From NCBI GenBank assembly GCA_029260535.1, contig JAJDDA010000166.1:1-41748 (forward strand): DNA of 41,748 bases, given 5' to 3'. The first letter of the stretch is position 1, and each line of letters begins with the position of its first letter. The DNA comes from Phycisphaerales bacterium (GTDB lineage Bacteria; Planctomycetota; Phycisphaerae; Phycisphaerales; UBA1924). Position numbers and translations under genes: made by a program. The notes beneath the pieces are model-generated. The model did no database searches and had not been told where the DNA came from. It saw only the letters and a program-made list of their open reading frames with translations. Positions 34,585 to 37,721 of the stretch are shown piece after piece.

Positions 34585-34847
34585 AGATACGGTGATCCGA
34601 CAGGACCGCCTCAGAGGAAATTCGCTGATCAGTTCCGGTTCAACTTTGACGGCGCTGATGTTATCGGGCTTCTCTCTGTTCTGGCGCCACGAGCCATTGA
34701 TTCCATCGCGCACGCGGGCACACCCGGATTGGGTGATCCGGCCTCAAATCGGGCCGGTCCCGATGAACTCCGGCGGTCAAGTTGCCGATGCTGATGGGCA
34801 CCGCGCAGACACACAGGGACCCGACGAAATTGTCGCAGGAGCGAACC

Positions 34848-35177
34848 ATGGGCATCAACGAGGCGGATTCAGAGCCGATCCAGAGCGACTTCGAGGGCGA
34901 TCCCGCGATGCGCGATCTCATCGAGCTGTTCGTCTCGGAAATGCCGTCTCAGGCGACCAGGCTCTCGGATCTCTTCGAAGGCAATCAGATCGATGACCTG
35001 CAGCAACTGGCGCGACAACTCAAGGGCGCCGCCGGCGGCTATGGGTTCGGGGTACTCAGCGATGCTGCGGCAGAGTTGGAAGACGCGATCAAGGTCGCCG
35101 GCGTGGTCGAGCACATGCGCTCGCAGGTCGATCAGTTGATCGATCTCTGTCAGCGCACGCGTACATCAGCCGGTTGA
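34848..35177 (+). CDS. Hpt-fold protein lacking the phospho-accepting histidine
   Basis: The 109-residue helical protein matches the histidine phosphotransfer (Hpt) domain in length and in its central helix: LARQLKGAAGGYGFGVL (residues 54-70) against the family pattern xHxLKGxAGxxG. In normal Hpt proteins the residue two before LK is the phosphorylated histidine. Here it is Arg56 (codon CGA, two changes from a His codon), so phosphotransfer by the usual route is not possible. AGGAG six bases before the ATG at 34848 fixes the start. The response-regulator/diguanylate cyclase gene starts 11 bases after its stop, indicating a functional pair. It may bind the receiver domain as a docking or inhibitory module (inference). 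Confidence 0.72.
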   Translation: MGINEADSEPIQSDFEGDPAMRDLIELFVSEMPSQATRLSDLFEGNQIDDLQQLARQLKGAAGGYGFGVLSDAAAELEDAIKVAGVVEHMRSQVDQLIDLCQRTRTSAG

Positions 35178-35188
35178 AGTCAGGGATC

Positions 35189-36193
35189 ATGGAACGGGGC
35201 CATCGCGTGTCGAAAGAGCTAAGCAACAACACGAAACCTCTGCGACCCGCGGTGACCGATCGCATCGCGGATCATCAGGACGTCCTGCTGGTCGACGACT
35301 CGACATTCATCCATGATTTGATCAAGAGGCGGATCGGGACCGAAGCGCTCACCATCCACAGCGCGATGGACGGCGAGCGCGGGATCGCGATGGCGGAATC
35401 GATCAGGCCTGCGCTGATCCTGCTGGACCTGAACATGCCGGGGATGGACGGATTCCAGGCGCTGCGGCGCCTGATGAATTCACCGAAGCTGAGCGACACG
35501 CAGGTCATCGTGATCTCCGCGAGCGACGACACCGAGGACAAGGTGGCCGGTCTCGAGCTCGGTGCGTGCGATTATGTCACCAAGCCGTTTAACCTTCCTG
35601 AGCTGCGCGCGAGGATGCGCTCGGCGCTCCGGACCCATGAGCTGCTCACGCTGCTCGCCGAGCGCGCCCAGGTCGACGGGCTCACCGGTATCGGGAACCG
35701 CTCATGCTTTGATGAACGCATCGACGAGGAAGTCTCGCACCGGATCCGAACCGACGCTGATCTGACGATCGCGATGTGCGACATCGATCTCTTCAAGCAG
35801 GTCAATGACACCTACGGGCACGCGGCGGGCGACGAGGTGATCCGTGGGATCGCCAAGATCTTCAATCGCCTCCTGCGCAAGAGTGATATCGCCTGCAGGT
35901 ATGGCGGCGAAGAATTCGCGATCATGCTCCGAGACACCTGCGTTCAAAGAGCGATCCCGGTCCTTGACCGGATCCGCAAACAGCTCGAGCAGACACGTTG
36001 GCCGTCCCATCCCGAGCACACGGTGACGTGCTCATTCGGCATCTGTGATCATCCGTCGGGTGATGCCAAGAATCCGACGGACTGGATCAAAACCGCGGAC
36101 GAGGCGCTCTACGCGGCCAAGCATGCCGGACGCAACCGGATCTATGTCGGCAACGGCTCAGGGATGCAAAGTTCGCTCAAGATCGCGTCCTGA
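35189..36193 (+). CDS. Response regulator with GGDEF diguanylate cyclase domain (PleD/WspR type)
   Basis: The protein of about 334 residues has a receiver domain (about 31-148) and a GGDEF domain (about 160-325). The receiver has the acidic pair in VLLVDDS, phospho-acceptor Asp80 in ILLDLNMPGMDG, Ser110 and Lys132 in VTKPFNLPEL. The cyclase has DGLTGIGNR, DIDLFKQVND, and the active-site RYGGEEF (239-243). The inhibitory I-site RKSD lies five residues ahead of it, so product inhibition by cyclic-di-GMP is expected. It synthesises c-di-GMP when phosphorylated. No kinase is adjacent. I chose the ATG at 35189; a TTG at 35174 would overlap the Hpt stop and a GTG at 35207 is also possible. Confidence 0.92.
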   Translation: MERGHRVSKELSNNTKPLRPAVTDRIADHQDVLLVDDSTFIHDLIKRRIGTEALTIHSAMDGERGIAMAESIRPALILLDLNMPGMDGFQALRRLMNSPKLSDTQVIVISASDDTEDKVAGLELGACDYVTKPFNLPELRARMRSALRTHELLTLLAERAQVDGLTGIGNRSCFDERIDEEVSHRIRTDADLTIAMCDIDLFKQVNDTYGHAAGDEVIRGIAKIFNRLLRKSDIACRYGGEEFAIMLRDTCVQRAIPVLDRIRKQLEQTRWPSHPEHTVTCSFGICDHPSGDAKNPTDWIKTADEALYAAKHAGRNRIYVGNGSGMQSSLKIAS

Positions 36194-36207: not shown

Positions 36208-37473
36208 TTACGAAACAGGATCGGCCAAACGCCACGAGGCGCCCTCGCGGGTGACCCTGCGGTAGCGCGTATCGCGTTCGATCGGTTCGAGACCGGCGTT
36301 GCGTATCGCGTTCTCGAGATCAACCGCGGTTGTTTCCTGGTGCGTTGAGGCGTGCCCAACCTTGGTGATGTCGTACCAGACGACGGTCCCGTCGATGTCG
36401 TCGGCGCCCGCCTGGAGCATCAGTTCCGCCATCGGCAGGGTCTGCATGATCCAGAACGCCTTGACGTGCGGGAAGTTATCGAGCATCAGCCGCGAGACGG
36501 CGATGGTCCGCAGGTTTTCGAGCCCCGATGGGCCGGGCAGCGCTTCCAAATCGGAACCGTCGGGGAAAAACGGGAGCGGGATGATCGCCTGGAAATAGCC
36601 GTGCGTGTCGTTTGGTTGGGGCTGGACGGCGCCCTGTCCTGTCAGCGTGACCGCCCCTGAAGCATCAGCCTTGTAACCCATCGCGGCGAGGGCTTCGTCC
36701 TGCGTGGTCCTGAGCATGTCCATGTGCACGAGGCGGTCGGCGCGCTCTTCGATGTGCCCGTAGAGGATCGTCGCGTTGGTGTTCAGCCCGAGCTCGTGCG
36801 CGACCTGATGCACGGTCAACCAGACATCGGACCGGATCTTTCCCTTGAACGCATCGTCGTGCACGCGGTCGTCGAAGACCTCGGCGCCGCCACCGGGGAG
36901 CGAGCCGAGACCGGCTTCCTTGAGTTGTTCGAGCACCCACCGGATCCCGGGCGCCGGATCGGCCTGCTTGTGCTTTTTCGTGATGCGCGCCAGGTGGACG
37001 ATCTCGACCGCGGTGAAGGCCTTGATATGCAATCCCGGCGCAGCCTCGCGGATCGCGCGCAGCATGTCGGTGTAGTACTCGAAGGGGAGCGTCGGGTGCA
37101 GCCCCCCCACGATGTGCATCTCCGTAGCGCCCCCGGTCTGGGCATCGATCGCCTCGTTGCGGATGTGATCGATCGAGAACTCGTACGCGCCCTCCTCGCC
37201 GGCCTTGCGGTAGAACTCGCAGAACTTGCAACTCAGGGCGCAGACGTTCGAGTAGTTCAGGTGCCGATTGACGTTGTAGTACGCGTTGGTCCCGTGCATC
37301 CGCTTGCTGACGAGATCGGCGATGCCGCACAAACCCCAGAGGTCACCGGTCGCATAGCACACAGCGCCCTCAGCCAACGTCAGCCTTTCGCCGGCGAGAG
37401 CCTTTTCGAGGATCGGCTTGAGAGCTGGATCGAGCAGATTGATCGGCGTGCATGTTGTGGTTGGTGTCGGCAT
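36208..37473 (-). CDS. mqnE: Aminofutalosine synthase (radical SAM)
   Basis: The protein of about 421 residues is MqnE, the radical-SAM enzyme that joins a chorismate-derived enolpyruvyl-benzoate to S-adenosylmethionine, giving aminodeoxyfutalosine in the alternative menaquinone pathway. The 4Fe-4S cysteines are in C-x3-C-x2-C (Cys78, 82, 85; NVCALSCKFCEFYRK). Further family signs are NRHLNYSNVC, HIVGGLHPTLPFEYY, LPGGGAEVFDDRVH, NATILYGHIEERADRL and DIDGTVVWYDITKVGHAS near the C-terminus. The ATG at 37473 gives a typical family N-terminus; the longer frame upstream is probably untranslated. It is convergent with the diguanylate cyclase gene. No other mqn gene is visible here, so the pathway genes are scattered. 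Confidence 0.93.
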   Translation of the reverse strand: MPTPTTTCTPINLLDPALKPILEKALAGERLTLAEGAVCYATGDLWGLCGIADLVSKRMHGTNAYYNVNRHLNYSNVCALSCKFCEFYRKAGEEGAYEFSIDHIRNEAIDAQTGGATEMHIVGGLHPTLPFEYYTDMLRAIREAAPGLHIKAFTAVEIVHLARITKKHKQADPAPGIRWVLEQLKEAGLGSLPGGGAEVFDDRVHDDAFKGKIRSDVWLTVHQVAHELGLNTNATILYGHIEERADRLVHMDMLRTTQDEALAAMGYKADASGAVTLTGQGAVQPQPNDTHGYFQAIIPLPFFPDGSDLEALPGPSGLENLRTIAVSRLMLDNFPHVKAFWIMQTLPMAELMLQAGADDIDGTVVWYDITKVGHASTHQETTAVDLENAIRNAGLEPIERDTRYRRVTREGASWRLADPVS

Positions 37474-37721
37474 TGGAACAGATGGTAGCCCAGGCGTCGC
37501 ACGTGGCGGGAGCGAGCGATCCGCTCTGAGTGTCCGAGAACGTGTCCGCCTATTCGGACGGCGCGGGTTGGTCTGAGGAGAGGACATCATCTCCATGATC
37601 GGGGGTTGGGACAGGTTCACCGCTGGTCGATTCGGACCGATTCCCGATGAGACGGACCGTTTCGGCGAAGGTGCGCACTGTGCGCGACGCTGACGGCCCC
37701 CAATCGGAGCCATGCCACCTC

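What the first reader, a model, noticed from the sequence alone, without database searches (positions are those of the whole stretch)
34848..36193. Hpt-like protein without its histidine paired with a c-di-GMP synthase
The Hpt helix reads ARQLKGAAGG, where the phospho-accepting His should be the Arg. It is encoded 11 bases ahead of a receiver-GGDEF protein whose receiver keeps Asp80 and whose cyclase keeps GGEEF and the I-site. A pseudo-Hpt that docks on the receiver without transferring phosphate would be an unusual control for cyclic-di-GMP output.
Basis: partly seen in the sequence, partly recalled or inferred. Interest (0 to 1): 0.6.

Follow-up and report, generated by a model that had tools for sequence, protein, structure and literature searches.

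The report
Hpt that lost its histidine
One bacterium's relay protein has lost the histidine that carries phosphate to its neighbouring cyclic-di-GMP synthase; relatives still have it, so this looks like a recent rewiring or early decay of an ordinary signalling relay, not a conserved new control device.

Summary
The 109-aa protein at 34848-35177 is an Hpt fold (Pfam 44.7 bits, AlphaFold pLDDT 88.5) with Arg56 (CGA) where the phospho-accepting His belongs. It sits 11 bases before a REC-GGDEF protein with intact Asp80, GGEEF and I-site.

Arg56 is not conserved. Of 130 homologous Hpt/REC-GGDEF loci in the same family, 128 have His; the exceptions are the window (Arg) and G059 (Ser). The pair is therefore ancestrally an ordinary hybrid-kinase -> Hpt -> cyclase relay.

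The loss fits its surroundings. The window's genome (93.8% complete) shows no hybrid kinase, while seven of seven compared relatives have one, and no other non-CheA Hpt. The protein is not visibly decaying: its branch is no longer than its partner's, whereas G059's is 2.6-fold longer. The receiver's Hpt-docking helix alpha1 is unusual (Asp43 where 124 of 129 have Arg).

Most likely it is a lineage-specific pseudo-Hpt that still docks the receiver; a relic in early decay is the main rival. No binding or transfer was tested.

In passing: a family-wide PilZ-REC-Hpt-fold class, in 152 of 163 genomes, lacks this His in 42 of 43 sequences read.

The parts
34848..35177 (+). 109-aa Hpt-fold protein without the phospho-accepting His (pseudo-Hpt); likely ribosome site AGGAG at 34837-34841
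   Evidence: Pfam PF01627 44.7 bits; AlphaFold four-helix bundle H19-44, H48-64, H68-82, H87-103, pLDDT 88.5; VIA best match 3myf Hpt, Z 12.3; upstream bases
35013..35015 (+). codon CGA, Arg56, at the position of the Hpt His
   Evidence: alignment column His in 128/130 family loci; codon
34950..34952 (+). codon of Gln35, at a position that is Arg or Lys in 121 of 127 family proteins
35109..35111 (+). codon of His88, the only His of the protein, at the start of helix 4
   Evidence: sequence, helix boundaries
35189..36193 (+). 334-aa REC-GGDEF diguanylate cyclase, 11 bases downstream of the Hpt stop
   Evidence: Pfam PF00072 91.2 bits, PF00990 158.3 bits
35282..35617 (+). receiver domain (residues 32-143) with D36, D37, D80, S110, K132
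35300..35341 (+). receiver helix alpha1 (residues 38-51), the face that docks Hpt/DHp partners; D43 instead of Arg; T39, R47 and I49 seen in no relative
   Evidence: docking role from PMC9981736
35426..35428 (+). Asp80, phospho-acceptor of the receiver
35876..35887 (+). RKSD, inhibitory-site RxxD
35903..35917 (+). GGEEF active-site motif

Best explanation
Ancestrally this is a standard phosphorelay (hybrid kinase -> stand-alone Hpt -> REC-GGDEF cyclase), encoded as an Hpt/REC-GGDEF gene pair throughout the family. In the window's lineage the hybrid kinases appear to be gone and the Hpt has lost its His (H56R) and the conserved Arg35, while the protein, its gene pairing and a competent-looking cyclase remain. 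The Hpt now cannot carry phosphate. Shown: His loss, pair conservation, no hybrid kinase or other non-CheA Hpt seen in the assembly, intact partner, no Hpt-specific acceleration, altered alpha1. Inferred: docking, the pose of Arg56, and the sign of the effect on cyclic-di-GMP.
For: His in 128/130 family loci, 127 of 130 directly next to a co-oriented GGDEF gene. G000: 18 HATPase and 23 REC matches, and no listed HATPase shares an open frame with a REC, while G099, G098, G020, G107, G090, G058 and G059 each have at least one HATPase-REC ORF. G000 has only two Hpts, the second in a CheA-like 789-aa ORF. The exact hybrid-type H-box is found in 16 of the 18 genomes of the window's clade, as a variant in G058, not in G000. 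Hpt/GGDEF terminal-branch ratio 0.94 (family median 1.26; G059, where both sites are broken, 2.57). Window keeps 12 of 14 Hpt positions conserved at 90% or more, losing only R35 and H56. Three residues of alpha1 are unique to the window; only 2 of 127 genomes, the window included, have as many. A precedent for the ancestral relay is CdgK-CdgS of Anabaena (PMC9927289).
Against: No congeneric genome is held, so Arg56 cannot be shown to be maintained; one lineage gives no conservation signal. No complex could be modelled. REC and GGDEF branches are also long (ranks 4 and 1 of 127), so the alpha1 changes may be general divergence. The hybrid kinase may lie in the missing 6% of the assembly.
Confidence: 0.48

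Rival explanations
1. Relic: once the hybrid kinase was lost the Hpt had no job; H56R and R35Q are early steps of decay and the cyclase now works alone, from another phosphate donor or constitutively.
For: Kinase loss is suggested. In G059 the equivalent Hpt is decaying (H to S, Q to H, K to I, G to D; Hpt branch 2.57 times its partner's) beside a receiver that lost D37 and D80 (to E); sister G058 has the broken receiver but intact His. So dismantling does happen in this clade.
Against: Window Hpt is not accelerated against its partner (ratio 0.94, 25th percentile), keeps K59, G60, Q57 and 12 of 14 conserved positions, keeps an intact ORF with coding-type GC3, and its partner's receiver is intact.
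Confidence: 0.3
2. The pseudo-Hpt serves other partners, for example the PilZ-REC-Hpt-fold proteins of the same genome (three in tandem on contig C32), as a docking or competition piece in a cyclic-di-GMP network without phosphotransfer.
For: G000 carries three PilZ-REC-Hpt-fold proteins whose Hpt-like domains also lack His; the class is family-wide.
Against: These proteins also occur where the stand-alone Hpt keeps His, so they do not explain the change; no interaction evidence.
Confidence: 0.1
3. Still a phosphotransfer protein, using another His (H88) or another residue.
For: H88 exists.
Against: H88 is at the start of helix 4, away from residue 56 in mid helix 2, and the 90%-conserved columns do not include it.
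Confidence: 0.04
4. Sequence or assembly error; the real codon is His.
For: It is one draft assembly in 257 contigs.
Against: CGA differs from CAC/CAT at two bases; frame intact; a second conserved residue, R35, is changed as well.
Confidence: 0.04

Closest known systems
AHP6 of Arabidopsis, a pseudo-histidine phosphotransfer protein (PMC3572949)
   Same: Hpt protein without the phospho-accepting His; acts in a phosphorelay without carrying phosphate
   Different: AHP6 inhibits a pathway that also has active AHPs, and pseudo-Hpts are conserved in higher plants; here no other non-CheA Hpt was found in the genome, the Arg is not conserved, and the partner is a single co-encoded cyclase. Effect not tested.
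CdgK -> CdgS of Anabaena PCC 7120 (PMC9927289)
   Same: Hpt-to-REC-GGDEF phosphorelay raising diguanylate cyclase activity; the likely ancestral working of this pair
   Different: there the Hpt is fused to the hybrid kinase and needs its His (H1757); here the Hpt is separate and has no His
HptB-type stand-alone Hpt (7c1i), Shewanella Hpt (3myf), YPD1 (1c02)
   Same: four-helix Hpt fold with helix-2 active site; K and G of HxxKG kept
   Different: the His itself is Arg
G059 locus L188 and G058 locus L113 (same family)
   Same: same gene pair with broken phosphotransfer chemistry
   Different: there the receiver has lost D37 and D80 (to E); G058 keeps the Hpt His, G059 has Ser; the window has the opposite pattern, dead Hpt and intact receiver

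Membership tests
Hpt phosphotransfer proteins (PF01627) | Hpt four-helix fold / profile match | tested here: met
   Pfam 44.7 bits; AlphaFold model; VIA Z 12.3 to 3myf, 10.8 to HptB
Hpt phosphotransfer proteins (PF01627) | phospho-accepting His in helix 2 (HxxKG) | tested here: not met
   Arg56 on the His column; no other His on helix 2
Hpt phosphotransfer proteins (PF01627) | phosphotransfer to a receiver | not testable with these tools
   needs purified proteins
pseudo-Hpt of the AHP6 kind | Hpt fold, His replaced | tested here: met
pseudo-Hpt of the AHP6 kind | competes with active Hpts in the same cell | tested here: inconclusive
   no other non-CheA Hpt found in a 93.8% complete genome
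pseudo-Hpt of the AHP6 kind | replacement conserved among orthologues | tested here: not met
   128 of 130 family homologues have His
REC-GGDEF diguanylate cyclases (PleD / DgcR / CdgS kind) | receiver with acidic pair, Asp, Ser/Thr, Lys | tested here: met
   D36, D37, D80, S110, K132
REC-GGDEF diguanylate cyclases (PleD / DgcR / CdgS kind) | GG[DE]EF active site and RxxD I-site | tested here: met
   GGEEF 239-243, RKSD 230-233
REC-GGDEF diguanylate cyclases (PleD / DgcR / CdgS kind) | cyclase activity raised by phosphorylation | not testable with these tools
   needs an assay

The most novel reading that the evidence does not exclude
In Phycisphaerales the Hpt fold has repeatedly been turned into a non-catalytic docking module of cyclic-di-GMP control: in PilZ-REC-Hpt-fold proteins across the family, and in the window as a stand-alone pseudo-Hpt that tunes a co-encoded diguanylate cyclase through its receiver without carrying phosphate.
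Probability: 0.3. Interest if true: 0.65.

Novelty: new variant of a known kind. Interest (0 to 1): 0.42.

Why it matters
Three related genomes give a natural series of one relay being taken apart: intact His with dead receiver (G058), both dead (G059), dead Hpt with intact receiver and no visible hybrid kinase (window). That makes it testable whether an Hpt keeps a job once it can no longer carry phosphate. Papers in the held library that use the term pseudo-HPt are on plants, so a bacterial one acting on a cyclase would be a new setting.

Tried and rejected
A conserved Arg56 sub-family was looked for and not found: family census, wider set, and a non-His codon pattern over 397 genomes of the class, whose only other credible Hpt-like hit was a PilZ-REC-Hpt protein (L240). 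That pattern only covers substitutions with a non-A second codon base. No complex could be modelled: the two genes lie in different frames and the tool folds single proteins. R35 loss as a mark of dead relays: non-Arg/Lys at this site in 6 of 127, including all three lineages with broken chemistry (L003, L113, L188), but Gln occurs there in 9 of 115 rows of the wider set (three of them copies of the window), so this is only suggestive. Pair presence goes with the hybrid-kinase motif (115 of 149 against 4 of 14, Fisher p 3.6e-4), but genomes are not independent and the exact motif misses variants (34 pair genomes lack it). PvrS/RcsC (PMC3842833) and Hmr (PMC11481889) were read as possible bacterial pseudo-Hpt precedents; neither is one. 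My first reading of Cys at the His position in the PilZ proteins was off by one residue and was corrected.

Full report
Observation. The window holds a 109-codon ORF at 34848-35177 whose product reads LQQLARQLKGAAGGYGF; residue 56, on the Hpt His position, is Arg with codon CGA. Pfam calls it Hpt at 44.7 bits. Eleven bases after its stop begins a 334-aa REC-GGDEF protein, 35189-36193, with D36, D37, D80, S110, K132, RKSD and GGEEF.

Is Arg56 conserved? No. A search of 163 genomes of the same family found homologues in 149. I aligned 130 loci (129 genomes): His in 128, Arg only in the window, Ser only in G059. In 127 of 130 a co-oriented GGDEF gene starts next to the Hpt; in the other three the GGDEF open frame extends further upstream. 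A wider set from GTDB genomes gave 111 His of 115 rows. So the pair is an old, family-wide Hpt -> REC-GGDEF module, and His is its normal state. The nearest homologues are only 45-50% identical and from other genera, so the age of the change is unknown.

What changed around it. The assembly (3.09 Mb, 93.8% complete, 257 contigs) has two Hpts: this one and one in a 789-aa CheA-like ORF. It has 18 HATPase and 23 receiver matches; among those listed no open frame holds both, so no hybrid kinase is visible (one weak HATPase match was not listed). Each of seven relatives examined has at least one HATPase-REC ORF, mostly with FLANMSHEIRTPM and a C-terminal receiver. Sixteen of the 18 genomes in the window's clade carry the exact H-box, G058 a variant, the window none. 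A kinase could still be in the missing 6%.

Decay or retained role? On a fixed tree the window's Hpt branch is 0.94 times its GGDEF branch, family median 1.26; in G059, where Hpt (Ser) and receiver (D37P, D80E) are both broken, the ratio is 2.57. The window keeps 12 of 14 near-invariant Hpt positions, also keeps K59, and loses R35 and H56. This speaks for an Hpt that is still constrained, though the change may simply be recent. The receiver's alpha1, the face that docks phosphotransfer partners (PMC9981736), has Asp43 where 124 of 129 have Arg, and three residues seen in no relative; only 2 of 127 genomes, the window included, have as many. The whole locus is on a long branch, so this is suggestive only.

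Structure. AlphaFold gives a confident four-helix bundle with Arg56 in the middle of helix 2; the only His, H88, starts helix 4. Best structural matches are true Hpts (3myf Z 12.3, AHP1 11.1, HptB 10.8). Helical bundles give middling Z easily, but the sequence profiles agree.

How it most likely works. Ancestral route, by analogy with CdgK-CdgS where phosphorylation raises cyclase activity (PMC9927289): hybrid kinase, Hpt, receiver, GGDEF. In the window phosphate can no longer pass through the Hpt (follows from the sequence). I infer that it may still dock on the receiver and set its phosphorylation by other donors or its dimerisation. The rival, that it is an early relic of a dismantled relay, is not far behind; G058 and G059 show dismantling from the receiver side in the same clade.

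Comparison with the known. By fold it is an Hpt; by the defining His it is not, so I file it as a pseudo-Hpt. The known precedent is plant AHP6 (PMC3572949); unlike AHP6 it has no other non-CheA Hpt to compete with in this assembly, and its replacement is not conserved. In the held library the term pseudo-HPt occurs only in plant papers; absence there is not proof of novelty.

In passing. A separate class of about 370-450-aa proteins with PilZ (RxxxR and NxSxxG kept in 90% or more), REC and a C-terminal Hpt-like bundle occurs in 152 of 163 genomes (E below 1e-40). The His-equivalent is His in 1 of 43 aligned; the receiver Asp is kept in 29 of 44 (a few rows repeat the same protein). AlphaFold of a member from the window's genome shows all three domains, with Hpt-like helices 310-394 at high confidence. 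These look like cyclic-di-GMP receptors carrying a dead Hpt and deserve their own study.

Noticed in passing
G000 contig C32 5389-9129 (loci L262, L265, L266, L289); also L065, L234, L235, L238, L240, L288-L317: Family-wide PilZ-REC-Hpt-fold proteins (152 of 163 genomes) whose Hpt-like domain lacks the phospho-accepting His in 42 of 43 sequences, often with a Cys one residue before it; PilZ RxxxR and NxSxxG are kept. Three stand in tandem in the window's genome.
   Followed up: partly
L188 (G059:C16) and L113 (G058:C11): Same Hpt/REC-GGDEF pair with the receiver's D37 and D80 lost (D80 to E), Hpt His kept in G058 and Ser in G059; as in the window, a convergent radical-SAM (menaquinone-type) gene lies downstream.
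   Followed up: partly
window 36208-37713 (-): Convergent radical-SAM gene (menaquinone/futalosine-type by appearance) after the pair; this neighbour is found in only 4 of 130 family loci.
   Followed up: no
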